Source: Streptomyces camelliae (lineage in GTDB: Bacteria; Actinomycetota; Actinomycetes; Streptomycetales; Streptomycetaceae). Taken from it: a stretch of DNA of 64,000 nt. The DNA is taken from positions 1,116,001-1,180,000 of the forward strand of contig NZ_CP115300.1 in assembly GCF_027625935.1 (NCBI RefSeq). Direction: 5' to 3'. This document shows positions 6,776 through 27,110 of the stretch, one piece after another. The notes under the pieces are model-generated. The model was not told the DNA's origin and did not search any database. It was given only the letters and a program-made list of their open reading frames with translations. The position numbers were made by a program, and so were the translations under genes. The first letter of the stretch is position 1, and each line of letters starts with the position of its first letter.

Positions 6776-6855
6776 GCCGACCGACCCTAGGCACGCCCGG
6801 CGAGCGAACCCCTCCGACCTGCCGTGTCCGGCCGCACCCGTACCCGAGTGGCGGG

Positions 6856-9306: not shown

Positions 9307-9545
9307 TTCGCCATTACAGCGCGTGTGAGCCTCCTGCGCAGCCCCTGTGAACGCTCCGGACGCCTCGGTGACCGCTCCGGGTGTACCGCGCGCCCGTCCG
9401 CTCGAAAGCCGCCGAACACATCTTGACCCATGAGTTCCGCACGCCGACCTCGTGACAGACGTGACTGTCCGCAGCCGTGTGACGCCTGCGCGTGTCTGTT
9501 CCGGTCACCGGGATTCCGGTCGCCGAGGACGAGAGCGGGAGGGGC

Positions 9546-10001
9546 ATGGACAAGCGGTACGAGGTGTACGCGCTGGCCGACCGGCATTTCTACGACACCC
9601 CCGACCGGCTCTCGGCGGACGGGCGGGAGCCCGCGCCGCTGTTCGCCACGGCGCGCCGCACCGTCCCGGCCGGCTGGCACGCGGCACGCTCCGGCGACCG
9701 GCTGACACTGACCCCGCTCGGCGCGGACGGCGCGCCACTGCCGTCGCCGGCCCAGGGCTGGAAGATCCACTCCTCGGCGACCGCGGCGAACGCCGACCGG
9801 ATCGCCGCCGTCGTCTGGGACTCCTGCGTACCGCGCCGCATCCCGTTCAAGTTCGTGCCCGGCCCGTATCTGCTGCACCTGCGCAACGCCAAGTACGCGG
9901 GCCGCGACACGAGCGGGAAGTTCGTCACGCTGTACCCGGCGGACGAGGAGCAACTGCACCGGACACTGCGCGAGCTGGGCGCACTGCCGGCGGGGTTGTG
10001 A
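9546..10001 (+). pseudogene. Truncated class III lanthipeptide synthetase (LanKC N-terminus only)
   Basis: The 151 residues match the conserved N-terminal region of RamC/LanKC enzymes (MDKRYEVYALADRHFYDTP, PAQGWKIHSSAT, VPFKF-like IPFKFVPGPYLLHLRNAKYAG, GKFVTLYPADEEQL). Full enzymes are about 850-900 residues, with lyase, Ser/Thr kinase and cyclase domains. Here translation stops within a few codons of GALPAGL, where homologues continue with a GEPGPYIL-type segment. A strong site (gggagggg) precedes ATG 9546. The break coincides with the left edge of the TnpB element, so truncation by insertion and deletion is the likely cause. No precursor peptide is visible in 9307-9545. Confidence 0.8.
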
Positions 10002-11812
10002 ACTACTGCCGGGAAAGAGGACATGAATGTGTTCCGGTGCGCATGAGTGGGTCTGTGCCGTGGTGGGCGTGCAGGGAACGAGAGTTCCGTCGTCGAATGG
10101 GTGACCTTGGCGGGTGGTGGTCGTCGAGTGGGGTGTCGGGGTTCTGCGGGTCGGGAGGGGAGGGTGAGCGTGGCGGGCGGACTGCGGGAGATGGCGGCAC
10201 CGTTCGTGGTGCCCGGGCCGTCCGGAGTCGCGGTCCGTGACCGGCTCAAGCAGCTGACCGCCGAGGACGAACGAGTGCTCCGCATGGTCGGCGATCACCT
10301 CGGCTCGCTCGCCTCCCGCGACCTGAAGGCACGCTGCACGGCCGGGCTGGATCATGACAGCGATGCGTGGGCGCAGCGGAAGCGGGTACTGACCGGGCAG
10401 TCGTCCTCACGGTGGGCGGGGTCGGTCACGAAGGCCACCCACGACCAGTGGAGACTGGCCCGGCGCGCCCAGCTCGCGCACATGCAGAACCTCCAGGCGG
10501 GGGTGCGCACGATCGCACACCGACTCTCCCTGCCCGTGGGAGAGAAAGGCAGCAGCAGGCACGTGCCGGGCGGTTACCGCTCTCGGCGCGAGTGGCATGC
10601 CAGGTCCCGCCGCCTACGCGTCCTTCAGGGCCGGCTCGAAGCGGAGCGGGCCGACTGGCAGGCCGGCATCGTGCACGTGGTGCGGCGGCAAGCAGCTGCT
10701 GACCACCCGCCATCACCTTCAGGCGGCCCAGCTCACCGAGGCCGAATGGCGGGCCCGGTGGGAGGCCGGACGCCGGTTCCTCCAGGCCGACGGGGAGTCG
10801 GGGAAGCGGTTCGGCAACGAGACCGTCCGTGTCACCCCCGACGGTGAGGTGAGCATCAAGCTCCCTGCCCTGCTGGCGTATCTGGCGAACGCCCCGCACG
10901 GTCGGTACGTGCTCACCGCCCGGGTGGCGTTCGCGCACCGAGGCGAGCAGTGGGGCGACCGCATCACCGCGAACCGGGCCGTGGCCTATCGCCTCCACGA
11001 AGACATCCTGCGCGGCCGCTGGTACCTCGCCGTCTCCTGGACCATCCCTCCGGCCACGATCGTGCCCCTTTCGGCGGCCCGTGCGAACGGGATGATCGGT
11101 GTCGACACCAACGCCGACCTCCCCCACCGCCGCCTGGCGCCTTGACCTGTACGGCAATCCGGTGTACGGCAATCCGGTGGGCGCGCCACCCCGGTTCGGC
11201 TACGACCCGTCCGGCACCGCCGCCCACCGCGACGCCCAGGTCCGCCACGCCCTCATCCGCCTCCTGCACGTCGCCGAACGCCACGGCCTCGCCATCGCCG
11301 TCGAAGACCTCGTCTTCACCGCGGAGAAGACCCGCGAGAAACACGGCAGACGCAAGCGGTTCCGCAAGCTCATCAGCGGCATGCCCGTGGCCGGACTACG
11401 GGCGCGGCTGGTCAGCATGGCCGCTGAGCTGGGGATCACCCTCGTCGCGGTCGACCCGGCCTACACCTTCAAGTGGGGCGCGCAGCACTGGCAGAAGCCC
11501 CGCACCAGCACCAAGCGGGCCACCACGCGGCACGACGCCGCGGCGGTGACCATCGCACGACGCGCCCTCGGGCACCGTATCCGGCGACGGACGGCACCGC
11601 CCCCGCAGCACCAGAGCGATGCTGCGGGGCATCGGACCGCCCAGGCCGGACCTGGTGTCCGAGGGCGTGAGGGAACCCGCCCCCGCCTTCCCGGACCACG
11701 GACACGATCCGTACCGCCCGGACGCGGAGCGAACTCGGGGGACCAGTGTGCCCAACACCGTTCGGGACACGCGGCTGAGCCTGTGCAACTCATGCTCAGT
11801 CTCTAGGAACGG
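9997..11812 (+). mobile_element. Decayed IS605/IS1341-type element carrying only tnpB
   Basis: A block of foreign sequence sits between two truncated genes, the LanKC N-terminus on the left and the receiver-domain fragment on the right. It contains one TnpB-type gene and no TnpA transposase, as in IS1341-like elements. Boundaries are estimated from where homology to the flanking genes stops, to within about 20 bases. No terminal inverted repeats are expected for this family and none were seen. Because both flanking genes are broken, the insertion was accompanied or followed by loss of intervening DNA. Confidence 0.7.
10164..11806 (+). pseudogene. tnpB: TnpB-like RNA-guided nuclease gene, frameshifted
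   Basis: The three RuvC acidic positions survive in pieces: D in GVDTNAD, E in IAVEDLVF and D in TRHDAAAVTI. The reading frame changes near 10683 (between HVVR and GGKQLLTTRHHL) and again near 11117-11130 (between VDTNAD and AAWRLD), so no intact protein is made. The usual C-terminal zinc finger is replaced by DPAYTFKWGAQHW, as I recall from other Streptomyces members of this group. A 15-bp unit (tacggcaatccggtg) is duplicated at 11150-11179. GTG 10164 follows gggaggggaggg. The final part (SVPPGRGANSGDQCAQHRSG) is the low-complexity end where TnpB elements encode their guide RNA. Confidence 0.8.
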
Positions 11813-11995
11813 TATGCCGTGGCCGTCGGCACAGCCCAGGTCCGCCGCGCACACGTCCGGCGAGACCGACCGTATCCGCGCCGCCGCGCCCCGCCACGGC
11901 GTGTCGTCCACGTCCAGCCCGGGTTCCCGGCCCAGCCACTCCGCCAGGACCGCTCGCACCAGACACGCGTCGTGCACCAGGAGTAACCGGATCAC
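11813..11995 (-). pseudogene. Truncated response-regulator receiver domain
   Basis: From GTG 11995 the frame encodes about 60 residues (VIRLLLVHDACLVRAVLAEW, then PDVCAADL) that resemble the first half of a CheY-like receiver domain of the LuxR/NarL type. The pair of acidic residues normally in the first loop is HD here. After ADGHGIPF the sequence runs into the TnpB element and homology ends, so the phosphoacceptor region's second half and the DNA-binding domain are gone. It was probably a regulator of the lanthipeptide locus whose synthetase is also truncated; that link is inference. Confidence 0.55.
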
Positions 11996-12427
11996 TGTCC
12001 GCCCCCTCGCAAGCTCGTCCTGCCTCAATCCGCGCCGCTCTTCGCAGCTCGTTCCCGTGCCTTCCCGCCGCCCGTGCCGTCGTGCCCGGTGCGGCCGGCC
12101 CGGTGGTCACCGTCGCGGCCCTCCCCCTCGTCCGCCCTCGGCCGCCCTCGGCCGCCCTCGTCCCCCTCGTCCCGTGCGCCGTCCACGTGGTGGTCCACGG
12201 CGCGGAAAGCGCCTGCCCATTCTTGGGCGCGTCCTTCGTTCGCGGGCGCGGAGAATCGGTCATCAGGGTGCGCGGGGGCGCACGCGGAGCACTCGTACGC
12301 CGCCCGCGCTTCCGACACCTCCGGCCCCAGGTCTCGTACGGCGCGGGCGCTCGCCGTGCGCGGCGGGCTCCCGCGAGGGAGTCTGGTCCCCGGGGTGCGA
12401 CGGACGGCCGGGCGAGGAGGTGGTGGC
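11996..12427. other. Intergenic, low-complexity C-rich repeats
   Basis: Between the receiver fragment and the next phosphatase I find no convincing gene. At 12131-12160 there are three near-identical 10-base units (tccgccctcg then gccgccctcg twice) followed by further ccctcgt variants. Open frames crossing it have amino-acid compositions dominated by Arg, Ala and Gly and no family resemblance. The stretch just before 12428 supplies the aggagg site of the phosphatase gene. Confidence 0.5.
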
Positions 12428-14575
12428 GTGTCCGACGGGCCAGGGCCAGGGTCTGGACAGGCGCCGCCGGCCGACGGGGCAGCGGCCGGCAGGCCGGTGC
12501 TGTCGCTCGAACTGACCTCGATGATCGAGGAGGTGCAGGCGCACTCCGGGGCGGTGTATCTGCTGCGCACCGACGAGCCGGTCCTGGAGATGGCGGTGCA
12601 CGCGGGCATGCCCCGGGCGTTCGCGGCGCCCTGGGAGCGGGTCGGGCTGAGCGCGCCGATCCCGGTCGCCGACGCGGCGCGCGAGCGGCGGCTGGTGTGG
12701 GTGGGCGGCGAGGAGGCGATGGCTGGCCGCTATCCGCGGATCGCGGTGGTGCTGCCGTACCCGTTCGCGCTGGCCGCGGTGCCCGTGGCGACCGAGAGCC
12801 GGGTGTACGGCGCGGTGTTCGTGACCTGGCCGGGCGCGCATCCGCCGGAGCTGTCGGACAGGGAGCGCGCGCATCTGACGGCGGCCTGCGACCGGCTCGC
12901 GCTGCGGCTGGAACGGGCCGCCGCGGAGAACCGGCCGATCGGCCCCGAGGCCGATGTGCTGCCGGTGCCGGCGTCGGGGGTGGCGGACACGCTGGGCTCC
13001 GTCGAGGCGACGCGGATGGTGGCCCGGCTGCCGTACGGGCTGATGTCGCTGGATCTGCACGGCCGGATCGTGTTCGTCAACGCGGCCGCCGTCGAGCTGC
13101 TCGGCAGACCGGCCGGGGAACTGCTCGGCACGCTGCCGTGGGTGTCGGTGCCCTGGCTCAACGACCCGACGTACGAGGACCGTTACCGGGCGGCGCTGCT
13201 CAGTCAGCAGGTGACGTCGTTCGTGGCGATGCGCCCGCCGGGCGAGTGGCTGTCGTTCCGGATGTACCCGAGCACGAACGGGCTGAGTGTGCGCGTCACC
13301 CGGGCCCGGGCGATGGCGGACATGACGCCCGGGGCCGTGCAGAGCGGTCCGGCGCCGGCCCGGCTCGTGACGATCTCGCAGGTGCTGAGCCTCGCGGGCG
13401 CGCTGACCGAGGCGGTGGGCGTGCAGGACGTGGTGCAGCTGGTGTGGGACGAGGTGACCCCGGCCGTCGGCGGCAAGGCGATGGTGATCCTCGGCTCGCA
13501 GGGCGGTCGGCTGCATGTGCTGGGGCACCGGGGGTACGACGACCCGCATGTCGTGGAGCGGTTCGACGGGCTGCCGCTGACCGAGCGCACCCCGGGCACC
13601 CACGCCCTGACCAGTGGGGTCCCCGCGTTCTTCGACTCGCAGGAGCAGTTGGAGCGGCTGTATCCGGGCCGGCACGAGACCCCGGACGGCTTCGCGGCCT
13701 GGGCGTATCTGCCGCTGATCGCGTCCGGGCGGCCGGTGGGCACGTGTGTGCTGGCGTACGCCGAGCCGCACGCCTTCCCCGCCGACGAACGGGCCGTGCT
13801 GACCTCCCTCGGCGGGCTGATCGCGCAGGCGCTGGAGCGGGCCCAGCTCTACGACGCCAAGCACCGCCTCGCGCACGGCCTCCAGCAGGCGCTGCTGCCC
13901 AGTTCGCTGGCGCCGCCGCCCGGCATCGAGGCCGCCGCCCGCTATCTGCCGGCCATGCACGGCATGGACATCGGCGGCGACTTCTACGACCTGGTGCCGA
14001 CGCTGCCGCTGACGGCGGCCGTGATCGGGGACGTCCAGGGGCACAACGTGACGGCGGCGGGCCTGATGGGGCAGATCCGTACCGGGGTGCGGGCGTACAC
14101 CACGGTCGGGCAGGCGCCGCACGAGGTGATGAGCAGCACCAACCGGCTGCTGATCGACCTCGGTGCCGAACTGTTCGCCAGCTGTCTGTACCTGCGGCTG
14201 GATCCGGCGCGCGGGCGGGCCGTGATGGCGCGGGCGGGGCATCCGCCGCCGCTGCTGAGACGGCCGGACGGGCGGGTGCGGGTGCTGGACCTGGCCGGCG
14301 GCCCGCTGCTCGGGATCGACGCGGCGGCCGTGTATCCGACGACCGAGGTGTCCCTCGCGCCCGGCTCGGTGCTGGTCCTGTACACCGACGGCCTGGTGGA
14401 GTCCCCCGGCATCGACATCGAGGACGCGCTGGTCGACCTCGGCGGGCTGCTGTCGGAGGCCGGCGACCAGCCGCTGGAGCGGCTCGCGGACGAGGTCGTA
14501 CGGCACAACGCCGCCGCGCGGGGGCGGGTGGACGATGTGGCGGTGCTGCTGCTGCGGGCCTGTACCGGGCCGTGA
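12428..14575 (+). CDS. GAF-PAS-GAF SpoIIE-type serine phosphatase
   Basis: A 715-residue cytoplasmic protein with a GAF-like domain (about 25-150), a PAS domain (about 180-290; YGLMSLDLHGRIVFVNAAAVELLGR), a second GAF (about 315-465) and a PP2C/SpoIIE phosphatase (about 480-712; GGDFYDL, GDVQGHN, DDVAVLLL). Unlike the other two phosphatases in the window it has no HATPase domain. GTG 12428 is chosen because gaggagg lies seven bases upstream; the open frame continues further upstream but in low-complexity sequence. It probably dephosphorylates a STAS-type anti-anti-sigma factor. A strong terminator follows. Confidence 0.88.
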   Translation: MSDGPGPGSGQAPPADGAAAGRPVLSLELTSMIEEVQAHSGAVYLLRTDEPVLEMAVHAGMPRAFAAPWERVGLSAPIPVADAARERRLVWVGGEEAMAGRYPRIAVVLPYPFALAAVPVATESRVYGAVFVTWPGAHPPELSDRERAHLTAACDRLALRLERAAAENRPIGPEADVLPVPASGVADTLGSVEATRMVARLPYGLMSLDLHGRIVFVNAAAVELLGRPAGELLGTLPWVSVPWLNDPTYEDRYRAALLSQQVTSFVAMRPPGEWLSFRMYPSTNGLSVRVTRARAMADMTPGAVQSGPAPARLVTISQVLSLAGALTEAVGVQDVVQLVWDEVTPAVGGKAMVILGSQGGRLHVLGHRGYDDPHVVERFDGLPLTERTPGTHALTSGVPAFFDSQEQLERLYPGRHETPDGFAAWAYLPLIASGRPVGTCVLAYAEPHAFPADERAVLTSLGGLIAQALERAQLYDAKHRLAHGLQQALLPSSLAPPPGIEAAARYLPAMHGMDIGGDFYDLVPTLPLTAAVIGDVQGHNVTAAGLMGQIRTGVRAYTTVGQAPHEVMSSTNRLLIDLGAELFASCLYLRLDPARGRAVMARAGHPPPLLRRPDGRVRVLDLAGGPLLGIDAAAVYPTTEVSLAPGSVLVLYTDGLVESPGIDIEDALVDLGGLLSEAGDQPLERLADEVVRHNAAARGRVDDVAVLLLRACTGP

Positions 14576-14586
14576 GGCGGGCAGCG

Positions 14587-14616
14587 GGTCCGGCCCTCCC
14601 GCCGGAGGGCCGGACC
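14587..14616 (+). terminator. Rho-independent-type hairpin after SpoIIE phosphatase
   Basis: A perfect 13-bp stem (ggtccggccctcc pairing with ggagggccggacc) with a 4-base cgcc loop starts 12 bases after the stop codon. There is no T run, as is usual in Streptomyces. Confidence 0.8.
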
Positions 14617-14680
14617 GTGTCCCCGCCGGCCGGGAACCGCGGGTGAGGCCGGTCGGGGAGCGCGGGGTGAGTCGCTCGGC

Positions 14681-16135
14681 TCAGCGTGTGCCGGTCAGGG
14701 ACGACGACCCGTCCTGCGCGGAACCGTTGCCGGACTGAGCGCTGCCGTTGCCGGACTGGTCAGCGGTGCCGGCACCGGACGGGGCGCTGCCGCTGCCCGT
14801 GCCCGACTGGTCACCGGCGCCGTTGCCGGAGGGGTCCGTGGCCGAGGCGGACGGGTCGGCGCTGCCGCCGATCTGGTCGCCGCCGGCGCCGGCCGGGTCG
14901 CTCGCCGAGGCCGACGGCGCGGCGGAGCCGGACTGGTCGCCCGCGCCGTTGCCCGCGTTACCGGCGTTGCCCGCGTTGCCGTTGCCGAGCGTCGCGCCGG
15001 TGGCCTGGAGGGCGGCGGTGACCGGCTGGAAGAAGGTCTCGCCGCCGCTGGTGCAGTCGCCGCTGCCGCCGGAGGTGAGGCCGACCGCGCCGCCGTCCTG
15101 GGTGAACAGGGAGCCGCCGCTGTCACCGGCCTCCGCGCACACATTGGTCTGGATGAGGCCGTTGACGGTGTCGGTGCCGCCCGGGACGGTCTCGCTCGCG
15201 AAGTTCACGGTGGCGTCCAGGCCGGTGACCTGGCCGTTGTGCAGTCCGGTGGTGGAGCCCATGCGGAAGACGGTCTCGCCGACGGTGGCGTCGGCGGCCT
15301 GGGTGATCTGCACGGTCTGGCCGTTGCCGGCATTGACCGTGCTGGACGTCTGTGTGGTCTTGTCGTTGTACTTGACGAGCGAGAAGTCGTTGCCGGGGAA
15401 CTTGGCCTGGTCGACGGTGGCGATGGGCTGGCCGTTCTGGGAGTCGGACCAGTCCTTGGCGGCGACTCCGCAGTGACCGGCCGTCAGGAAGGCGGGGCTG
15501 CCGTCGGCGGCGGTGACGTTGAAGCCGAGGGAGCAGCGCACGCCGCCCTGCTGGGTCTGGGCGAAGATGGCGTCGCCGCCCGCGACGAAGGTCTTGAAGG
15601 TGCCGGCGGACCTCTTCAGCGTCGCCATCCCGGAGCCGAGGCTCTGCACGGTCGACTGCAGTCTGTCCCACTTGGCGCCGGTGACGGTGGAATCGGCGGT
15701 GACGAGGACCTTGTTGGTGCGCGGGTCGACGGCCCAGGAGGTGCCGGGGATCGTCGCCTTGGTCTTCAGCGTCCCGGCGGCGGCCTTGAGCGCGCTGGTG
15801 CTGTTCTGCACCTGACGGACGACGGCGCCCGCGTTCTTGACCTGGGCGATCACGTTGTTGTCGCCGTTGACCACGTTCACGACCAGCTGCTGCTTGCCGC
15901 TGTCGAAGTACGCTCCGGCGAAGGCCTGGCCGAGGATCTTCTGCAGCTGGGCGGAAAGACCCGAGGCCTGCGAGGCCTTCAGGGTCCGGGCGGTGCCGAG
16001 GGTGCCCGCCGCGTTGGCGTCGTTCTTGTCCTGAGAGGCGTTGGCGTTGGGCAGCAGGAGAGCCGCCGCTCCGAGCGCCGCGACACCGCCCACCGCTATC
16101 GCGGCCTTGCGCTTGGGCATTCGCTTGTGACTCAA
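14681..16135 (-). CDS. Secreted streptogrisin-like S1 serine protease with low-complexity tail
   Basis: A 484-residue preproenzyme. A Lys-rich n-region and hydrophobic core form a signal peptide (1-34). A pro-region follows (about 35-184), then a trypsin-fold domain with His221 (LTAGHC), Asp250 (GNDFSLVKY) and Ser339 (AEAGDSGGS). Four Cys could form two disulfides in the protease fold. Residues 384-484 are a Gly/Asn/Ser/Asp tail with recurring GAGDQSG-type units that ordinary streptogrisins lack. TTG 16135 is taken as the start because aggagg lies eight bases upstream; ATG 16120 is the alternative. It acts extracellularly on proteins; family S1E. Confidence 0.88.
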   Translation of the reverse strand: MSHKRMPKRKAAIAVGGVAALGAAALLLPNANASQDKNDANAAGTLGTARTLKASQASGLSAQLQKILGQAFAGAYFDSGKQQLVVNVVNGDNNVIAQVKNAGAVVRQVQNSTSALKAAAGTLKTKATIPGTSWAVDPRTNKVLVTADSTVTGAKWDRLQSTVQSLGSGMATLKRSAGTFKTFVAGGDAIFAQTQQGGVRCSLGFNVTAADGSPAFLTAGHCGVAAKDWSDSQNGQPIATVDQAKFPGNDFSLVKYNDKTTQTSSTVNAGNGQTVQITQAADATVGETVFRMGSTTGLHNGQVTGLDATVNFASETVPGGTDTVNGLIQTNVCAEAGDSGGSLFTQDGGAVGLTSGGSGDCTSGGETFFQPVTAALQATGATLGNGNAGNAGNAGNGAGDQSGSAAPSASASDPAGAGGDQIGGSADPSASATDPSGNGAGDQSGTGSGSAPSGAGTADQSGNGSAQSGNGSAQDGSSSLTGTR

Positions 16136-16319
16136 CTTCTCGACCTCCTGGGGACGGGGGTCTGCCGCTCATCGGCAGTTCGGGATCGGGGCGCCTGGAT
16201 GGCCGTACGTACGCACCGGGCGCGCGCCGTGTTCAAAGCGGTGGCGCAACTTCCGCGCGGGGCGGGCGAATCGGCCACGCGACGCGTGCCTGGGCGGGCG
16301 GCCGGGAACAATCCCCCAT

Positions 16320-16733
16320 ATGACGATGACCACCGCCGAAGCCGACAAGATCCTCTCCGCCAACTTCGCACCCTGGGTGCTGGATCTCGGGTTGCTGGTC
16401 GAGGACGTCGGCGAGGACCGGGCCGTACTGCGTCTGCCCTGGTCCGAGCGGCTGGCCCGGGAGGGCGGCGGGCTGTCGGGACAGGCGCTGATGGCGGCCG
16501 CCGACACGGCGACGGTGCTCGCGGTGTCGGCTGCGCGGGGTGCCTTCGTGCCGATGACGACGGTGCAGCAGTCGACGTCGTTCCTGAGGCCGGTGACCGG
16601 TGCGGATGTCCTGATCGAAGCGGTCCTGACGAAGCTGGGCCGCCGGACGGCGTTCGCGGACATCACGCTGAGCGACGCCGGCTCGGGCCTGCCGGCCGCC
16701 CGGGCGAGCACGGTGTATGCGATTCTGGGCTGA
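16320..16733 (+). CDS. PaaI-type hotdog thioesterase
   Basis: A 137-residue hotdog-fold protein resembling acyl-CoA thioesterases of the PaaI/YiiD type. Typical features are the central helix with GGLSGQALMAAADTATVLAV, the TVQQSTSFLRPVTG strand and the FADITLSD strand. A substrate thioester is likely but not identifiable. There is only a weak ribosome-binding site, so the mRNA may be nearly leaderless. It stands alone between the divergent protease gene and the peptide locus. Confidence 0.72.
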   Translation: MTMTTAEADKILSANFAPWVLDLGLLVEDVGEDRAVLRLPWSERLAREGGGLSGQALMAAADTATVLAVSAARGAFVPMTTVQQSTSFLRPVTGADVLIEAVLTKLGRRTAFADITLSDAGSGLPAARASTVYAILG

Positions 16734-17187
16734 CACGGTCCGCTACTGATCAGTAACGGTCCGTTCCCGACGCTGAGCGGAATCCCGGCTTCAGGGAATC
16801 TCCACATCGAATACCCAGACGGGTCACCGCCGACAGCGGATCTGCACAACCGCGCGCCCCCGGCAACACGTTTGGCGCGGAGTGCCGGATTCGCCGCTCG
16901 CGGCACAAGGGGCGGGACGCGGCGATGCCGCGCGGCTTGTGAAGGAGTCGCCGACAAGCCGTGCGCACGCCTGCACGGATGAGCCCGTTCCGCAGCCAAG
17001 TGCCCAGGTGAGCGCGTTGGTTGATTGGAAGCGCGCCCCGCGTGCGTGCTTTGATCCATCGCACCGCAGGGTCGCTGCGGGCTCTCGGGCCATGGGAGCC
17101 GGCCGGCCGCGGTCGCGGCCGTCCGTCTGTCCCCAGAGGGGGCCGCTCCCCCCTTGTGAAATATCCATCAGGAAGGGAAGTTCCATC
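16734..17187. other. Upstream region of the peptide-export locus
   Basis: There is no gene-like frame in these 450 bases except an in-frame upstream extension of the peptide gene without coding character. A 12-bp palindrome at 16744-16755 is flanked by direct copies of acggtccg. The region ends with aggaagggaag just before the peptide start at 17188. It most likely holds the promoter and operator of the locus. Confidence 0.5.
16744..16755. promoter_or_regulatory. Palindrome tactgatcagta, possible operator
   Basis: A perfect 12-bp palindrome framed by two copies of acggtccg (16735-16742 and 16756-16763). It sits 11 bases after the thioesterase stop and about 430 bases before the peptide gene. 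Function is inferred only from symmetry. Confidence 0.3.
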
Positions 17188-17403
17188 ATGAACTCCACCC
17201 CCCAGGTTGAGACCGTCGAGATCTCGGACGCCGAGCTGGACAACGTCTCCGGCGGTCTTTCCGTGAACACCCTCAACACCGTGACCGGCGCCGTCAACGG
17301 CATCGCCCCGGTTTCCGGCCTGGTCAACACCGTCGTCGGCACCGCCGAGGGTGTCACCGGCCTGAACGTCGCGCCGGTCACCAACCTGGTCGCCGGTCTC
17401 TGA
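17188..17403 (+). CDS. Double-glycine leader precursor peptide, Cys-free, exported by the adjacent NHLM system
   Basis: A 71-residue peptide. The leader (1-23) ends in the class II/NHLM-type processing motif ELDNVSGG after an acidic helix (QVETVEISDAELDN). The predicted core is 48 residues, rich in Val, Gly, Asn, Thr and Leu, with no Cys, Trp, Tyr, Lys, Arg or His and one Glu. It contains two related blocks (VTGAVNGIAPVSGLV and VTGLNVAPVTNLV). Start ATG 17188 follows aggaagggaag. No lanthipeptide synthetase, radical SAM, cyclodehydratase or other maturase is adjacent, so the product may be unmodified or modified by enzymes elsewhere. C39-peptidase cleavage after Gly23 is expected from the downstream transporter. 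Function unknown: bacteriocin, signal, or self-assembling surface peptide are all possible. Confidence 0.82.
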   Translation: MNSTPQVETVEISDAELDNVSGGLSVNTLNTVTGAVNGIAPVSGLVNTVVGTAEGVTGLNVAPVTNLVAGL

Positions 17404-17423
17404 TCGCACCCAGGTGTCACCGA

Positions 17424-17454
17424 AGTCCCGGAGCTGTTTCCCCGCTCCGGGACT
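17424..17454 (+). terminator. Hairpin between precursor gene and export genes (attenuator-like)
   Basis: A perfect 11-bp stem (agtcccggagc with gctccgggact) and 9-base loop, 20 bases after the precursor stop and 57 bases before the HlyD-like gene. Its position suggests partial termination, so that precursor transcript exceeds exporter transcript. Confidence 0.7.
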
Positions 17455-17511
17455 CTCGGGTGCCCGCGTCTGTAGTCGTCACGCTGTCTGTCCTCGGGTG
17501 AGGGAAGTCCC

Positions 17512-18315
17512 GTGCAATTCCGCCAACAGGCCCTCGCCAAGCTCCAGTCGCCGGAAGAGCTGGACCTTCCGGTGCGCCTGGCCCGTCCCCAGGGCTGGCT
17601 CGCGCTGGGGGTCACCGTCGTCGTCATGGCGGCGGCCTCCGTCTGGGCCGTGACCGGTTCGGTCGCCTCCACGGTGAGCGCGCCCGCCATCCTCACGCAC
17701 GGGCAGGGCAGTTACCTCCTGCAGAGCCCGGTGTCCGGCCAGGTCACGGCCGTCCTCGCGCAGCAGGGCGAACAGCTGCCGGCGAACGCCCCGGTCCTCA
17801 AGGTCCGTACCACGCAGGGCGATTCGGTCGTCCGCACGGTCGCCGCGGGCCGCGTCACCGCGCTCGCCGCCACCATCGGGCAGATCATCCAGACCGGCAC
17901 GAACGTCGCCGCCGTCGAGAAGGTCGCCCACGCCTCCGACCCGCTGTACGCGACCGTGTACGTCCCCGCCGAGAACGCCGCAGCCATCCCCGCGCACGCC
18001 TCCGTCGACCTCACCGTGTCCTCCGTGCCGACGCAGACGTACGGCGTCCTGCGCGGCGAGGTGAAGGCGGTGGACCGCGAGGCACAGTCGGCCCAGTCGA
18101 TCGCCGCGTTCCTCGGCGACAGCCAGCTCGGCCAGCAGTTCACCCGGGGCGGCCGCCCGGTGGCCGTCACCGTCGCGCTGGACACGTCGGCGACGAAGAG
18201 CGGCTACCGCTGGTCCACCTCCGACGGGCCGCCGTTCGGGCTCGACTCGATGACCCTCGCCTCCGCCTCGGTCAAGCTGGCCGACCAGCGTCCGATCGAT
18301 TGGCTGCTGCCGTGA
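17512..18315 (+). CDS. HlyD-family secretion adaptor, NHLM bacteriocin system
   Basis: A 267-residue membrane fusion protein with a cytoplasmic N-terminus, one membrane span (about 28-48) and an extracytoplasmic lipoyl-like domain (SPVSGQVTAVLAQQGEQL) followed by a barrel region (PLYATVYVPAEN). It matches the short HlyD-like proteins found beside paired NHLM ABC transporters. GTG 17512 follows agggaag. Its stop overlaps the GTG start of the next gene (GTGA). It probably bridges the transporter to the cell exterior in this monoderm. Confidence 0.8.
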   Translation: MQFRQQALAKLQSPEELDLPVRLARPQGWLALGVTVVVMAAASVWAVTGSVASTVSAPAILTHGQGSYLLQSPVSGQVTAVLAQQGEQLPANAPVLKVRTTQGDSVVRTVAAGRVTALAATIGQIIQTGTNVAAVEKVAHASDPLYATVYVPAENAAAIPAHASVDLTVSSVPTQTYGVLRGEVKAVDREAQSAQSIAAFLGDSQLGQQFTRGGRPVAVTVALDTSATKSGYRWSTSDGPPFGLDSMTLASASVKLADQRPIDWLLP

Positions 18316-20534
18316 GCACGACTCAGGAAACCCGCGGCCGCAGACGGGCCGCCCCGGCCAAGCGGCCGGTCCCCAAGCCCCGCGGCGGCACGGTCCGTAC
18401 CCCCACCGTGCTCCAGATGGAGGCCGTCGAGTGCGGAGCCGCCTCCCTCGCGATGGTCCTCGGCCACTACGGCCGGCACGTCCCGCTGGAGGAGCTGCGC
18501 ATCGCCTGCGGTGTCTCCCGCGACGGCTCGCGCGCCTCCAACCTCCTGAAGGCCGCCCGCAGTTACGGTCTGACGGCCAAGGGCATGCAGATGGACCTGG
18601 CGGCCCTCGCGGAGGTCGCGGCACCGGCCATCCTCTTCTGGGAGTTCAACCACTACGTCGTCTTCGACGGCATGGGCCGCCGCTTCGGCCGGCGCGGGGT
18701 GTACATCAACGACCCCGCCAAGGGCCGCCGGTTCGTGCCCATGGAGGAGTTCGACGGCAGCTTCACCGGTGTGGTGCTGGTGCTGGAGCCCGGCGACGGC
18801 TTCAGCAAGGGCGGACGCAAACCGGGCGTGCTCGGCGCGATGCCGGCCCGGCTGCGCGGGACCGCGGGCACCCTGCCCGCCGCCGTCCTGGCCAGCCTGC
18901 TGCTGGTCGCGGTCGGCGCCGCCGTGCCCGCGCTCAGCCGCACCTACATCGACATGTTCCTCATCGGCGGCCGGACCTCGCTGCTCGGCACGCTGTTCGC
19001 GTCGATGGGCACCTGTGTGCTGCTCACCCTGGTGCTGACCTGGCTCCAGCAGGCCAATCTGCTGCACGGCCGGATCATCTCCTCGACCCTGTCCAGCGCC
19101 CGTTTCCTGCGCCATCTGCTGCGGCTGCCGGTCACGTTCTTCGCCCAGCGCTCCCCCGCCGACCTGGTGCAGCGCCTTCAGTCCAACGACCAGGTCGCCG
19201 AGACCCTGGCCCGCGACCTCGCGGCGGCCGGCGTGGACGCGATCGTCGTCGTCCTGTACGCCGTGCTCCTCTACAGCTACGACCCGCAGCTGACGTTCGT
19301 CGGCATCGGCGTGGCCCTGCTCAACGTGGTCGCCATGCGGCTGGTCGTACGGCTGCGCGCGACGCGTACGGCGAAGCTGCGCGCGGACACGGCACGGCTC
19401 ACCAACACCTCGTACACCGGCCTTCAGCTGATCGAGACGATGAAGGCCACCGGCGGCGAGGACGGCTACTTCCGCAAGTGGGCCGGGCAGCACGCCACCA
19501 CCCTGGAGGAGGAGCAGCGGCTCGGGGTGCCGAGCGCGTGGCTCGGGGTGGTCGCGCCGACGCTGGCCACGTTCAACAGCGCGCTGATCCTGTGGATCGG
19601 CGGGCTCAGGGCGGTCGAGGGGCACATCTCGGTCGGTCTGCTGGTCGCGTTCCAGGCGCTGGTGGCCCGCTTCACCGCCCCGCTCACCCGGCTCAACGGC
19701 GTGGCGGGCCGCATCCAGGACTTCGCCGCCGACGTGGCCCGGCTGAAGGACGTGGAGAACTTCCAGGCCGACCCGCTCTACGCCCGCCCCGGCGGCGCCG
19801 ACTCCACACGCCGGCTCCAGGGGCACGTCGAGCTGGAGAACGTCACCTTCGGCTACAGCCCCCTGGACAAACCGCTGCTCAGCGGCTTCGACCTGACCGT
19901 GGGTCCGGGGCAGCAGGTCGCGCTGGTCGGCGGCTCGGGCAGCGGCAAGTCGACGGTGTCCCGGCTGATCTCGGGCCTGTACGCCCCGTGGGACGGCGTG
20001 ATCCGGATCGACGGCCGCCGGCTGGAGGACATCCCGCGCGGGGCGCTGGCCTCCTCCGTCTCCTTCGTCGACCAGGACGTGTTCCTCTTCGAGGGCACGG
20101 TCCGCGACAACGTGGCCCTGTGGGATCCGTCGATCCCGGACGAGGCCGTGGTGGAGGCGCTGAAGGACGCGGCCCTGTACGACGTCGTCATGCGCCGGCC
20201 CGGCGGCATCCACAGCACGGTCGAGCAGGACGGCCACAACTTCTCCGGCGGCCAGCGCCAGCGCCTGGAGATCGCGCGGGCGCTGGTGCGCCGGCCGAGC
20301 ATCCTCGTGCTGGACGAGGTGACGAGCGCGCTGGACGCGGAGACCGAGCTGATCGTGATGGACAACCTGCGCCGGCGCGGCTGCGCCTGTGTGGTGATCG
20401 CCCACCGGCTGAGCACGGTCCGCGACAGCGACGAGATCGTGGTGCTCCAGCACGGCACGGTCGTCGAACGCGGCAGGCACGAGGAACTGGTGGCGCACGG
20501 CGGCACGTACGCGGCACTGGTCAGGGAGCGGTGA
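18312..20534 (+). CDS. C39 peptidase-containing ABC transporter (NHLM family)
   Basis: A 740-residue combined protease/exporter. The N-terminal C39 domain has Gln35, Cys41 (QMEAVECGAAS), His114 (FNHYVVFDG) and Asp134 (YINDPAKG), all catalytic residues in place. Six membrane helices follow (about 180-450). The ATPase domain has Walker A near 540 (GGSGSGKST), signature FSGGQRQRLEIARAL, Walker B ILVLDEVTSALD and the H-loop IAHRL. It should cut the precursor after its Gly-Gly and export the core. GTG 18312 overlaps the preceding stop. The next gene begins one base after its stop. Confidence 0.93.
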   Translation: MSTTQETRGRRRAAPAKRPVPKPRGGTVRTPTVLQMEAVECGAASLAMVLGHYGRHVPLEELRIACGVSRDGSRASNLLKAARSYGLTAKGMQMDLAALAEVAAPAILFWEFNHYVVFDGMGRRFGRRGVYINDPAKGRRFVPMEEFDGSFTGVVLVLEPGDGFSKGGRKPGVLGAMPARLRGTAGTLPAAVLASLLLVAVGAAVPALSRTYIDMFLIGGRTSLLGTLFASMGTCVLLTLVLTWLQQANLLHGRIISSTLSSARFLRHLLRLPVTFFAQRSPADLVQRLQSNDQVAETLARDLAAAGVDAIVVVLYAVLLYSYDPQLTFVGIGVALLNVVAMRLVVRLRATRTAKLRADTARLTNTSYTGLQLIETMKATGGEDGYFRKWAGQHATTLEEEQRLGVPSAWLGVVAPTLATFNSALILWIGGLRAVEGHISVGLLVAFQALVARFTAPLTRLNGVAGRIQDFAADVARLKDVENFQADPLYARPGGADSTRRLQGHVELENVTFGYSPLDKPLLSGFDLTVGPGQQVALVGGSGSGKSTVSRLISGLYAPWDGVIRIDGRRLEDIPRGALASSVSFVDQDVFLFEGTVRDNVALWDPSIPDEAVVEALKDAALYDVVMRRPGGIHSTVEQDGHNFSGGQRQRLEIARALVRRPSILVLDEVTSALDAETELIVMDNLRRRGCACVVIAHRLSTVRDSDEIVVLQHGTVVERGRHEELVAHGGTYAALVRER

Positions 20535-20535
20535 G

Positions 20536-23361
20536 ATGACGACGGTCCAGGAGGGATACAACGGCGACCTCGTGCTCGGCGCGCTGGGGTCCATGGGCAC
20601 CCGCATCGACTGTGCCGGCTTCAACCGCGTCGACCTGGAAGGCCCGCAGGTGCTGTGGCTGGTCGCGGCGGGCGCCCTGGACCTGTTCGCGGTGGACGCC
20701 GCCCAGCAGGGCCACTGGCACCACCTCGGCCGGCTGGAGGCGGGCACGCTGCTGCTCGGCCCGGTCGCGGGGCCCCAGCACACCCTGGTGGCCCGCCCGG
20801 TGCGCGACTGCGCGCTGCACCGGATCAGCCTGCGCGAGCTGTACCAGCCCGCCAACACCCAGACCTGGTCGTACGACGAGTACGGCAACCCGCAGTACGT
20901 CCCGCCCGCCACCAGCCCGCTGGAGTACGCGGTCGCGCTCGGCGTCGGCCGCGGCCTGTCCGTCCTGTTCCAGGCCCCGATGGCCGAGGACCGCTCCCAG
21001 GCGCCCACCGACGACGACGTGTTCTGGATGCAGGTCCCGCCGGGCAGCGTGCAGTACGGCTCGCTCTACGGCGCGGAGGCCGCCGCCGATCTGCTGATGG
21101 ACCCGGCGCTGTGGCAGTCGATGGTGGACCAGCAGTACCGGCTGCTGACCGCGCTGGACCGGTGGATCGAGCAGCTGGAGCGCACCCACGAGACCCGCGC
21201 GGCCGCCGGTATCAAGGCCGGTGAGGAGGTCCGCGCCCAGGCCGACCGGACGCTGCTCGCCTCCATCGGCAAGCGCTCGGCCCGCCGGACCACGGCCGCC
21301 GACGCGGATGCCGGGTACGCGGCCTGCAAGCTGGTCGCCGAGGCGGCCGGGATCAAGCTCGCCGAGTCCGCGCAGAGCGGCACCGAGAGCGAACGCCTCG
21401 ACCCGGTGGAGCGGGTCGCCCTCGCCTCCCGGGTACGCACCCGGACCGTACGGCTCCAGGGGCGCTGGTGGCGGGAGAACGTGGGCCCGCTGGTCGGGCA
21501 CCGGGCACTGTCCGGGGCGCCGGTCGCGCTGCTGTGGCGGCGCGGCGGCTATGTGGCCGTCCATCCGGGCACCGGGCGCGAGACGCCGGTCGAGAAGGCG
21601 AACGCGGAGGAGTTCGAGCCGCGCGGGGTGATGTTCTACCGGCCGCTGCCCGACAAGGCGCTCACGCCGCTCGGTCTGCTGCGGTTCAGCCTCCAGGGCA
21701 CGCGCGGCGATCTGCTCAACCTGCTGCTGGCCGGGCTGGTGACGGTGGCGATCGGCGCGCTGGTGCCGGTCGCGACCGGCAAGGTGCTCGGCGAGTACGT
21801 GCCGAAGGCACAGGAAGGCCTGATCGCCCAGGTGTGCCTGGCCGTGATGGTGAGCGGGGTGGTCGCGGCGGCGTTCACGCTGCTGGAGAACCTGTCCATC
21901 CTGCGGCTGGAGGGCCGGATCGAGGCCGCGCTCCAGCCCGCCGTGTGGGACAGGCTGCTCCGGCTGCCCACCCGGTTCTTCACCCAGCGCTCCACCGGTG
22001 AGCTGGCCAGCGCCGCCATGGGCATCAGCGCGATCCGCCGGCTGCTGGCGGGGGTCGGCCCGGTGGTCGCGCAGTCGGTGACGGTCGGTGCGATGAACCT
22101 CGGCATGCTGTTCTGGTACAGCCCGGCGCTGGCGATGGCGGCGCTCGGCATGCTCGTCGTCATCGCGGCCGTGTTCCTGGGCCTTGGGCTGTGGCAGGTG
22201 CGCTGGCAGCGGCGGCTGGTGACACTCGGCAACAAGCTGAACAACCAGGCCTTCCAGACCCTGCGCGGCCTGCCCAAGCTGCGGGTGGCGGCGGCCGAGA
22301 ACTACGCGTACGCCGCCTGGGCGCGGGAGTTCGCGCGCAGCCGGGAGCTGCAGCAGAAGGTCGGCCGGATCAAGAACCTCACGACGGTGCTGGGCGCGGT
22401 CTATCTGCCGATCGTCACGCTGCTGATGTTCATGCTGCTGGCGGGCCCGGCGAGGGGCGCGATGTCGGCGGCGGACTTCCTCACCTTCAACACCTCGGTG
22501 ACGATGGTGCTGACCTCGGTCACCCAGCTGACCGGCTCCTTCGTCTCGGCGGTGGCCGCGCTGCCGCTGTTCGAGGAGATCAAGCCGGTCTTCGAGGCGA
22601 TGCCCGAGGTGCGCACGTCGAGCACCCGGCCGGGCCCGCTGTCGGGTGCGCTGGAGGCCCGGCGCCTCTCCTTCCGGTACGCCGACGACGGCCCCCTCGT
22701 TCTCGACGACGTGTCCTTCGCCGTCCGGCCGGGCGAGTTCGTCGCGGTCGTCGGTCCGAGCGGCTGCGGCAAGTCCACCCTGCTGCGGCTGCTGATCGGC
22801 TTCGACAAGCCGGTCTCCGGCAGCGTCCTGTACGACGGCCAGGACCTGGCGGCGCTCGACCAGTCGGCGGTGCGCCGGCAGTGCGGAGTGGTCCTCCAGC
22901 ACGCCCAGCCCTTCACCGGCTCCATCCTGGACGTGATCTGCGGCACCGAGCCGTACACGCCGGAGGAGGCGATGGCGGCGGCCGAGATGGCGGGGCTCGC
23001 GGAGGACATCAAGCGGATGCCGATGGGCCTGCACACGATCGTGGCGGCGGGCGGCGCGATCTCCGGCGGCCAGCGCCAGCGCCTGATGATCGCCCAGGCC
23101 CTGATCCGGCGCCCGCGCATCCTCTTCTTCGACGAGGCCACCAGCGCCCTGGACAACGACACCCAGCGCATCGTCATCGACAGCACGCGCAAGCTGAACG
23201 CCACCCGCGTCGTCATCGCGCACCGGCTCTCGACCGTCCTGGACGCCGACCGGGTGATCGTGATGGAGGACGGCAAGGTCGTCCAGCAGGGCAGCCCGGC
23301 CGAGCTGCTCGCCGACACCGGCGGCCGGCTGCACGAGCTGGTGCGCAGGCAGCTGGCCTAG
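20536..23361 (+). CDS. Second NHLM-type ABC transporter (permease-ATPase with N-terminal domain)
   Basis: A 941-residue partner transporter. Residues 1-390 form a soluble region: a cyclic-nucleotide-binding-like N-terminal fold and a domain preceding the permease (RLQGRWWRENVGPLVGH). Membrane helices follow (about 395-680), then an ATPase with Walker A near 741 (GPSGCGKST), signature ISGGQRQRLMIAQAL and Walker B ILFFDEATSALD. Paired transporters of this length with a C39 transporter and an HlyD-like protein define the NHLM export module. It has no peptidase domain. Stop codon overlaps that of the convergent YihY gene in the palindrome cctagg. Confidence 0.9.
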   Translation: MTTVQEGYNGDLVLGALGSMGTRIDCAGFNRVDLEGPQVLWLVAAGALDLFAVDAAQQGHWHHLGRLEAGTLLLGPVAGPQHTLVARPVRDCALHRISLRELYQPANTQTWSYDEYGNPQYVPPATSPLEYAVALGVGRGLSVLFQAPMAEDRSQAPTDDDVFWMQVPPGSVQYGSLYGAEAAADLLMDPALWQSMVDQQYRLLTALDRWIEQLERTHETRAAAGIKAGEEVRAQADRTLLASIGKRSARRTTAADADAGYAACKLVAEAAGIKLAESAQSGTESERLDPVERVALASRVRTRTVRLQGRWWRENVGPLVGHRALSGAPVALLWRRGGYVAVHPGTGRETPVEKANAEEFEPRGVMFYRPLPDKALTPLGLLRFSLQGTRGDLLNLLLAGLVTVAIGALVPVATGKVLGEYVPKAQEGLIAQVCLAVMVSGVVAAAFTLLENLSILRLEGRIEAALQPAVWDRLLRLPTRFFTQRSTGELASAAMGISAIRRLLAGVGPVVAQSVTVGAMNLGMLFWYSPALAMAALGMLVVIAAVFLGLGLWQVRWQRRLVTLGNKLNNQAFQTLRGLPKLRVAAAENYAYAAWAREFARSRELQQKVGRIKNLTTVLGAVYLPIVTLLMFMLLAGPARGAMSAADFLTFNTSVTMVLTSVTQLTGSFVSAVAALPLFEEIKPVFEAMPEVRTSSTRPGPLSGALEARRLSFRYADDGPLVLDDVSFAVRPGEFVAVVGPSGCGKSTLLRLLIGFDKPVSGSVLYDGQDLAALDQSAVRRQCGVVLQHAQPFTGSILDVICGTEPYTPEEAMAAAEMAGLAEDIKRMPMGLHTIVAAGGAISGGQRQRLMIAQALIRRPRILFFDEATSALDNDTQRIVIDSTRKLNATRVVIAHRLSTVLDADRVIVMEDGKVVQQGSPAELLADTGGRLHELVRRQLA

Positions 23362-26299: not shown

Positions 26300-26734
26300 C
26301 TAGAAGGAGAAGACGCCGTCGCCCACGGAGTCCTTCATGCAGGCGTTGCCGAAGGTCCGGTCGTAGGAGACGCGTTGGCCCTGCCAGACGCCCTGGACGG
26401 TGACGACGACCGGGTCGTACAGATTGGTGCACCACACGCCCTCGGCGGGCCGCAGCGCGTTGAAGTCCCCGCCGGTGCCGCGCAGTTCGGCGCAGGCTCG
26501 GGCCGCGTCGGGGTGAGTGCCGGAGGGCGTGGGGGCGCAGGCGAGGGTGACGGCGCGCTCGGGGGTGGCCGTGGCCGCGTCGTTGCCGTGGCCCACGGTG
26601 AGGACCAGCGCCGAGGGGGCGTAGAGCGACGACGGGGCGACGCCCGGCGCCGCGACGGCGGCCCCGGTCAGGGGTCCGCAGACGGCGGCGGCCGTGAGGC
26701 CGAGGGCCGCTGCCCAGCGCGCGGTGTTCCGCAT
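26300..26734 (-). CDS. Streptomyces subtilisin inhibitor (SSI) family protease inhibitor
   Basis: A 144-residue secreted inhibitor. A signal peptide (1-29, AAVAA) is followed by the SSI domain: [15 protein letters not shown], the [15 protein letters not shown] block, [20 protein letters not shown] and a C-terminal VFSF. All four conserved Cys (66, 81, 102, 132) are present for two disulfides. By alignment with SSI (CPMVYDP) the reactive-site P1 residue is Asn104 and P1' is Leu105, where Met, Lys or Arg is usual at P1. ATG 26734 is chosen because ggaagg lies nine bases upstream; ATG 26743 has no room for a site. Confidence 0.9.
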
Positions 26735-27110
26735 TGTGTGCATCCTTCCGCTCGAACAGACGAGGTGCCGGCCCGGGCCCAGGTGGGGCGCCGGAGCGGC
26801 GAGCGCCACTCTGCCGAGTCCACCGGGGAAACACACATCGAACGCATGGGTTTCGGTAACCTTTCGTGTTGAATCAGTGGCGTGATGTCACGGAATTCGC
26901 ACACCGTGACCCAGGAACAGAGCGGGTTCCGCCCGGTCGAAGCGATTCAATGGCCGAAAATCAGCGCCTCGTTAATCGTCCTGAAACATTCCGACCTTGC
27001 CCCCTTCAAGTCCCTTCATGACTCCTTGTGTTCATGAAGTGATCACGTATCGTCGGTCTGCACGCACGCTCAGCTCCTCAGCTCCTCAGCGACGAGAGGC
27101 GGACGACCGG
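26735..27110. other. Divergent promoter region between SSI and the hydroxy-acid oxidase
   Basis: No gene seen. The region is less GC-rich than its surroundings. Two adjacent 8-bp palindromes, ttcatgaa (27031-27038) and gtgatcac (27039-27046), lie 65 bases before the oxidase start and could be an operator. A repeated cagctcct follows at 27071-27086. Confidence 0.4.

What the first reader, a model, noticed from the sequence alone, without database searches (positions are those of the whole stretch)
17188..23361. Intact NHLM-type export locus with a short Cys-free precursor and no maturation enzyme
The 71-residue precursor has a clear ELDNVSGG leader end and sits directly before an HlyD-like adaptor, a C39-peptidase ABC transporter with complete catalytic residues and a second NHLM ABC transporter. 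NHLM systems were defined with long nitrile-hydratase-like or Nif11 leaders and modified cores. Here the leader is only 23 residues, the core has no Cys, and no lanthipeptide synthetase, radical SAM or cyclodehydratase gene is adjacent. A dedicated two-transporter machine for an apparently unmodified, hydrophobic Val/Gly/Asn/Thr peptide is unusual and I know of no characterised product.
Basis: partly seen in the sequence, partly recalled or inferred. Interest (0 to 1): 0.82.

Follow-up and report, generated by a model that had tools for sequence, protein, structure and literature searches.

The report
Streptomyces exporter for unmodified hydrophobic peptides
Many Streptomyces carry a small secretion machine whose cargo is a short, greasy, cysteine-free peptide that looks chemically unmodified; the locus is already in print as a putative bacteriocin cluster, but what the peptide does is unknown.

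Summary
Window 17188-23361 is a four-gene unit: a 71-residue double-glycine precursor (48-residue Cys-free core), a short HlyD-like adaptor, a C39-peptidase NHLM ABC transporter and a second NHLM ABC transporter. It is not a rarity: it matches the published S. coelicolor locus SCO0753-SCO0756. In a 199-genome genus sample 145 carry the C39 transporter; where both parts could be placed, precursor and transporter adjoin in 118 of 122 genomes. In 38 lineage-spread loci only the exporter genes recur in all. The window's genome shows no LanM and no LANC_like domain, so the database name 'type A2 lantipeptide' is unsupported. Additions here: scattered 'orphan' precursors with the same leader and other cores (one in this genome, 3.9 Mb away); a shared promoter-like element (40 of 56 main, 16 of 18 orphan loci; 17 of 14018 random pieces); a conserved hairpin between precursor and exporter. 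Best reading: one exporter secretes a co-regulated set of unmodified hydrophobic peptides, most likely acting on the producer's own surface. Gene content and synteny are shown; cleavage, lack of modification, exporter sharing and the surface role are inferred.

The parts
17188..17403 (+). precursor peptide gene, 71 aa; leader codons 17188-17256 ending ELDNVSGG, core codons 17257-17400 (48 aa, no Cys)
   Evidence: homologues; NCBIfam TIGR01847 bacteriocin_sig 18.8 bits over cut-off 15.7
17512..18315 (+). short HlyD-like membrane fusion protein, 267 aa (GTG start)
   Evidence: TIGR03794 148.6 bits, under its cut-off 156.2; HlyD_3 4.6e-11
18312..20534 (+). NHLM ABC1: C39 peptidase + permease + ATPase, 740 aa
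   Evidence: TIGR03796 1027.9 bits; Peptidase_C39, ABC_membrane, ABC_tran; only match over the cut-off in the genome
20536..23361 (+). NHLM ABC2: second ABC transporter without peptidase, 941 aa
   Evidence: TIGR03797 893.7 bits
17023..17057 (+). shared promoter-like element GATTGG-N17-GTGCTTTGATCC
   Evidence: right half, relaxed, in 40 of 56 main and 16 of 18 orphan upstream regions against 17 of 14018 random pieces; anchored consensus; strict two-part pattern matches only here in the own genome and misses the own orphan, which has CTGG for TTGG
16938..16978 (+). upstream element TGTGAAG...CGTG...TGCACG, GTGAAG 107 bases before the GTG of the promoter-like element; tentative activator site
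   Evidence: strict form in 31 of 56 main and 1 of 18 orphan loci, control 5 of 21273; consensus
17424..17454 (+). terminator-like hairpin between precursor and exporter (11-bp perfect stem, 9-base loop, no T run)
   Evidence: perfect stem >=9 bp in 73 of 81 close and 16 of 22 divergent intergenic pieces; 3 of 405 mononucleotide shuffles and 11 of 405 random pieces; whole-piece fold not unusual, z -1.24
14681..16135 (-). divergent alpha-lytic-type secreted serine protease; neighbour, probably not part of the system
   Evidence: Pro_Al_protease, Trypsin; match in 77 of 80 close loci but only 7 of 38 lineage-spread loci

Best explanation
The locus makes and secretes a small unmodified peptide. 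The precursor is probably made in excess over the exporter (hairpin after the precursor gene), its 23-residue double-glycine leader docks on the C39 domain of ABC1, which cuts after GG, and the 48-residue hydrophobic, non-cationic core leaves through an ABC1/ABC2/HlyD complex. The same exporter serves further precursors with the same leader encoded elsewhere and switched on from the same promoter type, so one machine secretes a co-regulated peptide set. The cores most likely act on the producer's own hyphal surface or matrix (coat, surfactant or adhesion modulator) rather than as an antibiotic. Shown here by sequence: leader, exporter families, synteny, no recurring enzyme gene in the flanks, no LanM or LANC_like domain in this genome, shared promoter-like element, hairpin. 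From a paper: strong control by the SCO5282/5283 two-component system in S. coelicolor. Inferred: cleavage, export, lack of modification, precursor excess, exporter sharing, surface role.
For: Synteny: precursor-HlyD-ABC1 in 80 of 80 named Streptomyces loci. In the 199-genome sample the exporter's ABC1 is in 145 and a P0001 match in 130, both in 126; of the 122 of these whose best precursor row was listed, 118 have it within 5 kb of ABC1 and the other four on a separate contig. Blind check: of 20 exporter loci in genomes where P0001 had found nothing, all 15 of the main type carry an adjacent short GG precursor with a Cys-free core. Cys-free: 289 of 289 retrieved precursor proteins (the best 120 of each of three searches), with no Lys, Arg, Trp or Cys in any core; 81 of 81 close nucleotide-derived ones. 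Only exporter genes recur in all of 38 lineage-spread loci. Own genome: LanM 0, LANC_like 0. Orphan: same leader; a 264-base stretch covering about 195 upstream bases plus the leader codons is 75% identical, E 4.4e-39, the only strong match besides itself. Type-2 orphan in 21 of 199 genomes, all 21 among the 145 with the exporter. Expression: SCO0753 is the most overexpressed gene in the dispersed SCO5282-D125G strain, operon almost silent in the null mutant (PMC6629963).
Against: I found no mass spectrometry, knockout or phenotype of the peptide itself in my paper searches. The SCO5282 mutant changes many genes, so its dispersed growth does not show what the peptide does. 54 of 199 sampled genomes lack ABC1 over the cut-off, so the system is dispensable. 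The core evolves faster than the leader (dN/dS 0.54 against 0.17) and differs much between lineages, which would also fit an antagonistic peptide. Ser/Thr are abundant in the core, so dehydration by an unlinked enzyme is not excluded. Co-occurrence counts take no account of relatedness. The strict upstream element is absent in 25 of 56 main and 17 of 18 orphan loci, and the promoter-like half in 16 of 56 and 2 of 18. A helix-like hydrophobic period is weak for the window's core alone (120 of 2000 shuffles reach it). The hairpin lacks a T run.
Confidence: 0.5

Rival explanations
1. An unmodified class II-like bacteriocin: a GG-leader peptide exported by its C39 transporter that permeabilises competitors' membranes, immunity being intrinsic or unlinked.
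For: Leader passes NCBIfam TIGR01847 bacteriocin_sig; a C39 exporter is the classic bacteriocin route; hydrophobic core with GxxxG spacings; faster core evolution; literature calls it a bacteriocin cluster (PMC5733086 and PMC6414726 passages).
Against: No recurring immunity-gene candidate of 130 aa or more: only the exporter genes are in all of 38 loci (shorter frames were not compared). Cores have no Lys or Arg in 289 of 289 proteins, unlike the mostly cationic class II bacteriocins (recalled). Whole precursor 82-97% identical in the 80 listed Streptomyces loci (the list keeps the best 80 of 313, so divergent ones are left out).
Confidence: 0.2
2. A secreted signal: the exported core or a fragment is sensed at the surface and feeds back on development.
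For: Precursor found only in one family in these samples, nearly always one exporter per genome, tightly regulated (PMC6629963); GG-leader export is a common route for signal peptides (established knowledge).
Against: No receptor or kinase recurs beside it; 48 residues and a strongly hydrophobic composition are unusual for a diffusible signal (recalled); the hairpin suggests that bulk product is wanted.
Confidence: 0.15
3. A true RiPP (lanthipeptide, linaridin-like or otherwise dehydrated) matured by an enzyme encoded elsewhere.
For: NCBI name 'type A2 lantipeptide', taken at face value in PMC13047742 (passages); Thr/Ser-rich core; stand-alone LanM serving separate clusters is proposed for Prochlorococcus (PMC3140520 passages); LanM over the cut-off in 52 of 199 sampled genomes.
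Against: No Cys in 289 of 289; own genome has no LanM and no LANC_like domain; 112 of 145 exporter genomes lack LanM at E<=1e-50, and LanM genomes carry the exporter less often (33 of 53) than the rest (112 of 146). YcaO, radical SAM and class III enzymes were not searched genome-wide.
Confidence: 0.1

Closest known systems
S. coelicolor SCO0753-SCO0756 (Arroyo-Perez et al. 2019, PMC6629963)
   Same: Same gene order and functions; hydrophobic, cysteine-free peptide; said to be conserved in many Streptomyces; neighbours also fit: a secreted protease (SCO0752, PMC6295645 passage) on one side and an SSI-type inhibitor (SCO0762 is Sti-like, PMC4255298 passage; here 26300-26836) on the other
   Different: I could not fetch the S. 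coelicolor record by name; orthology rests on order, description, one exporter per genome and a relative named Streptomyces violaceoruber, P0182, at 83% identity. The passages and the one section that I read do not mention orphan precursors or the promoter element
NHLP/TOMM microcin export system TIGR03794/03796/03797 (Haft et al. 2010, PMC2887384, passages)
   Same: Same three exporter families
   Different: There: nitrile-hydratase or Nif11-related leaders, hypervariable cores often rich in Cys/Ser/Thr, and modification enzymes beside many of them. Here: 23-residue leader, Cys-free core that keeps its composition, no enzyme found
Cyanobacterial GG-precursor clusters, groups I-VII (PMC3140520, passages) and NCBIfam CTB family NF038167
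   Same: GG leader, C39 transporter and HlyD; only group IV is defined by LanM; NF038167 matches the leader weakly (E 0.007, under cut-off)
   Different: The second ABC transporter is reported for groups IV and V (fused in VII) only; no relation of the cores was tested
SapB / chaplins of Streptomyces
   Same: Hydrophobic secreted products of the hyphal surface (analogy drawn in PMC6629963)
   Different: SapB is a lanthipeptide; chaplins use Sec signal peptides (recalled); no sequence relation was tested

Membership tests
NHLM three-gene export system | ABC1 over TIGR03796 cut-off | tested here: met
   1027.9 against 853.3 bits
NHLM three-gene export system | ABC2 over TIGR03797 cut-off | tested here: met
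   893.7 against 709.4 bits
NHLM three-gene export system | HlyD over TIGR03794 cut-off | tested here: not met
   148.6 against 156.2 bits; best family by far, protein shorter than the model. So: works like an NHLM exporter, full membership of the adaptor not met
NHLP / Nif11 precursor (Haft 2010) | nitrile-hydratase-like or Nif11-like leader | tested here: not met
   23-residue leader, no such NCBIfam hit at E<=0.1
Class II lanthipeptide ('type A2 lantipeptide') | Cys in the core for thioether rings | tested here: not met
   0 of 289 cores, 0 of 81
Class II lanthipeptide ('type A2 lantipeptide') | LanM / LANC_like enzyme | tested here: not met
   none in own genome
Double-glycine leader peptide exported by C39 ABC transporter | GG leader beside a C39 exporter | tested here: met
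   TIGR01847 over cut-off; synteny
Double-glycine leader peptide exported by C39 ABC transporter | cleavage after GG and secretion | not testable with these tools
   needs mass spectrometry
Class II bacteriocin | antimicrobial activity | not testable with these tools
   bench test needed
Class II bacteriocin | linked immunity gene | tested here: inconclusive
   no recurring neighbour of 130 aa or more besides the exporter in 38 loci; smaller frames, where immunity genes often lie, were not compared
SCO0753-0756 orthologue | direct sequence comparison with SCO0753-0756 | not testable with these tools
   named record not available; order and description match

The most novel reading that the evidence does not exclude
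Streptomycetaceae run a surface-peptide regulon: one NHLM exporter, derived from a RiPP machine, now secretes a family of unmodified, non-cationic hydrophobic peptides encoded at several unlinked loci under one promoter type and one two-component system, and these peptides remodel the hyphal surface or matrix as a further class beside SapB and the chaplins/rodlins.
Probability: 0.3. Interest if true: 0.78.

Novelty: new variant of a known kind. Interest (0 to 1): 0.5.

Why it matters
A peptide-exporter pair found in most of the sampled Streptomyces, strongly regulated in S. coelicolor, has no known product or function and is labelled a lantipeptide in databases although nothing found here supports that. 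If the regulon reading holds, it shows a RiPP-type export machine working without modification and gives a handle on pellet formation, which matters for fermentation.

Tried and rejected
Maturation enzyme: sought as a recurring neighbour in 38 lineage-spread loci (frames of 130 aa or more from four reference loci, about 5-6 kb upstream and 3 kb downstream; for three of the four references only the top 14 rows were printed) and as LanM / LANC_like genome-wide; none. Protease as a partner: in 77 of 80 close loci but 7 of 38 spread ones. Known RNA in the window: no Rfam match. Frame 16169-17059(-) as a gene: codon-position GC 0.62/0.69/0.78 is not coding-like and in most relatives its similarity shrinks to the stretch just upstream of the precursor. 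Whole-piece RNA folds of the intergenic and 5' regions: z -1.24 and -1.74, not convincing. Conserved context of orphans: at most 3 of 21 orphan loci share neighbours with the three references tested. Exporter loss in precursor-only genomes: of four (G001, G043, G119, G180) I opened two; G180 has the exporter with ABC1 split over two frames, G119 has HlyD beside the precursor at the start of the contig; G001 and G043 are weak matches (E 4e-4 and 8.8e-4), not opened. Structure of the precursor: no model obtained. Rows set apart: five opened loci with ABC1 at about 49-58% identity are another NHLM type and are not in the 'main type' counts; G120 was not opened; four genomes (G008, G018, G060, G145) have both parts but no listed precursor position, so they are not among the 122. 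The lineage-spread loci L141-L160 and L212-L226 were chosen because a precursor match had been found, so they are no independent test of adjacency.
Full report
OBSERVATION. The precursor (17188-17403) has 71 residues, a 23-residue leader ending ELDNVSGG and a 48-residue core of V, T, G, L, N, A, S, P, I and one E, with no Cys. HlyD-like, NHLM_ABC1 with Peptidase_C39 and NHLM_ABC2 follow on the same strand, the last three chained by overlap or near-overlap. The HlyD falls just short of its NCBIfam cut-off (148.6 against 156.2). This ABC1 is the only one over the NHLM_ABC1 cut-off in the 9.6-Mb genome.

HOW COMMON. Protein search gave 635 homologues of the precursor; in the 120 listed, the organisms named are Streptomyces and the usual NCBI name is 'type A2 lantipeptide'. 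In the named genome collection 313 of 496 pattern stretches encode a relative; in the best 80, precursor, HlyD and ABC1 stand together in 80 and ABC2 is seen in 79. In 199 genomes of the genus, ABC1 over the cut-off is in 145, twice in two of them, and P0001 finds a precursor in 130; 126 have both. For 122 of the 126 the best precursor position was listed: it is within 5 kb of ABC1 in 118, and on another contig in four. Of the 19 exporter-only genomes I opened 18 (20 loci): all 15 loci of the main exporter type (ABC1 79-83% identical) have a divergent adjacent short GG precursor with a Cys-free core; the other five are a more distant NHLM type, one of them on a 3.2-kb contig. In the family sample 52 of 101 genomes in 8 of 17 genera match the precursor profile; 17 such loci of other genera were opened: 15 show the exporter beside the match (13 with an extracted frame, each Cys-free) and two are orphans. 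In the class sample 31 of 394 genomes match, all in the window's genus, 1 of 137 genera.

NO MATURATION ENZYME FOUND. Across 38 loci spread over the lineages, the frames of 130 aa or more that recur in all are the three exporter genes (and frames opposite them); in the window's list the next real neighbour, the divergent alpha-lytic-type protease, is in 7 of 38, although it is in 77 of 80 close loci. The own genome has no LanM and no LANC_like domain. LanM is over the cut-off in 52 of 199 genus genomes. At E<=1e-50, 33 of 53 LanM genomes and 112 of 146 others carry the exporter, so LanM does not travel with it. The core has no Cys in 289 of 289 retrieved proteins and no Lys, Arg or Trp either; these are the best-listed members, and some more divergent ones do have an Arg. 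YcaO, radical SAM and class III enzymes were not searched genome-wide.

ORPHAN PRECURSORS. The genome holds a second precursor 3.9 Mb away (G000:C1:5010100-5010306, minus), with nearly the same leader and a different Cys-free core. A 264-base stretch, about 195 bases upstream plus the leader codons, is 75% identical to the window locus, E 4.4e-39; the next match in the genome is a 33-base piece at E 0.005. Twenty second loci from other genomes were opened; 15 gave a clear frame, 14 of them Cys-free. The type like the own orphan (E<=5.3e-17, a cut set by me at a gap in the list) is in 21 of 199 genomes, all 21 among the exporter carriers; 53 of 199 genomes show two or more matches to that profile, weak ones included, 51 of them exporter carriers. 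Since the own genome has one NHLM_ABC1, sharing of the exporter is the simplest reading; relatedness was not corrected for.

SHARED CONTROL. A promoter-like element GATTGG-N17-GTGCTTTGATCC lies before the start codon (GTG at -142). Its right half, relaxed, is within 330 bp upstream in 40 of 56 main loci and 16 of 18 orphan loci, against 17 of 14018 random pieces of the same loci. A second element, TGTGAAG...CGTG...TGCACG, is found in strict form in 31 of 56 main loci, 25 of these exactly 107 bases before the GTG by my count, in 1 of 18 orphan loci, and in 5 of 21273 random pieces; orphans show a degenerate form at about the same place. The 22-base step between GTGAAG and the next GTG would suit an OmpR-type regulator, and SCO5283 is listed as OmpR type (PMC9739842, passages); this link is inference. 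Between precursor and HlyD a perfect stem of at least 9 bp occurs in 73 of 81 close and 16 of 22 divergent pieces, against 3 of 405 mononucleotide shuffles and 11 of 405 random pieces; a partial terminator giving precursor excess is the likely use.

WHAT IS IN PRINT. Searches: 'SCO0753' to 'SCO0756' (4 papers), 'type A2 lantipeptide' with Streptomyces (1 paper), NHLM with Streptomyces and bacteriocin (none), double-glycine with peptidase C39 and Streptomyces (1 paper, listing only), NHLM or nitrile hydratase leader with ABC transporter (7 papers), SCO5282/5283 (6 papers), SCO0752/SCO0762 (10 papers). PMC6629963 (passages and section 29) gives SCO0753 as the most overexpressed gene (log2 6.3; qPCR 8.1) in the dispersed SCO5282-D125G strain and the operon as almost silent in the null mutant; it says the peptide is hydrophobic, lacks cysteines, is conserved with its transporter, and might change the hyphal surface. 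PMC5882110 (passage) lists sco0756 as up-regulated when Ppm1 activity is lost; PMC5733086 (passages) has SCO0753 up in the aor1 mutant; PMC6414726 (passage) lists SCO0756 as bacteriocin biosynthesis. These fit an envelope-related role but test nothing about the peptide. I met no mention of orphan precursors or of the shared promoter in what I read; the library lacks most subscription journals.

HOW IT LIKELY WORKS. Leader docking and cleavage by the C39 domain, export through ABC1/ABC2/HlyD, no modification, co-regulated co-substrates from orphan genes, action at the own surface. The first steps follow from the families; the last rests on composition (GRAVY 0.95 for the window core, no basic residue), wide retention and the published expression data. 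Bacteriocin and signal remain open. The core's dN/dS of 0.54 (leader 0.17) was measured on relatives chosen for similarity and is weak evidence either way.

VERDICT. A published but unstudied Streptomyces locus; as a system a variant of NHLM export with apparently unmodified cargo. New here, as far as my searches go, are the orphan set, the shared element and the hairpin, all testable in a laboratory strain.

Noticed in passing
L003 10748-10903(-), own genome near C1:5010800: A 51-aa frame with a Cys/Gly-rich tail (GACGCGSGCGCGCQQGNPCQCG) lies just upstream of the orphan precursor; a PhoU-like frame is at L003 11020-11709(-) (name recalled from the translation, no search run).
   Followed up: no
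L180 4989-5222(+): An orphan precursor with the usual GG leader has a His-rich core (HHGHHGHHGHHGMHGG), which might bind metal.
   Followed up: no
L220 8445-8672(-) and 8974-9180(-): Two tandem GG precursors stand in front of one exporter in a genome of another genus of the family.
   Followed up: no
L136, L140, L258, L259, L261-L263: A second, more distant NHLM type in actinomycetes sits directly after a frame containing MWKYETVAYPLILKHVGVLYQ or a close variant, which looks like a SagB-type dehydrogenase end (recalled), i.e. a TOMM-type locus.
   Followed up: partly
window 26300-26836(-): SSI-type protease inhibitor (PF00720, 2.3e-37), fitting the position of Sti-like SCO0762 near SCO0752-0756.
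   Followed up: partly
window 4815-14646: Ten frames scanned in about 10 kb gave no Pfam match at 1e-6; the true frames there may not have been chosen.
   Followed up: no
window 14681-16135(-): Alpha-lytic-type protease with a long Gly/Ala/Asn/Ser-rich tail after the trypsin-like domain.
   Followed up: no
public records of the precursor family: NCBI names many of these proteins 'type A2 lantipeptide' although no Cys and, in this genome, no LanM supports it.
   Followed up: yes
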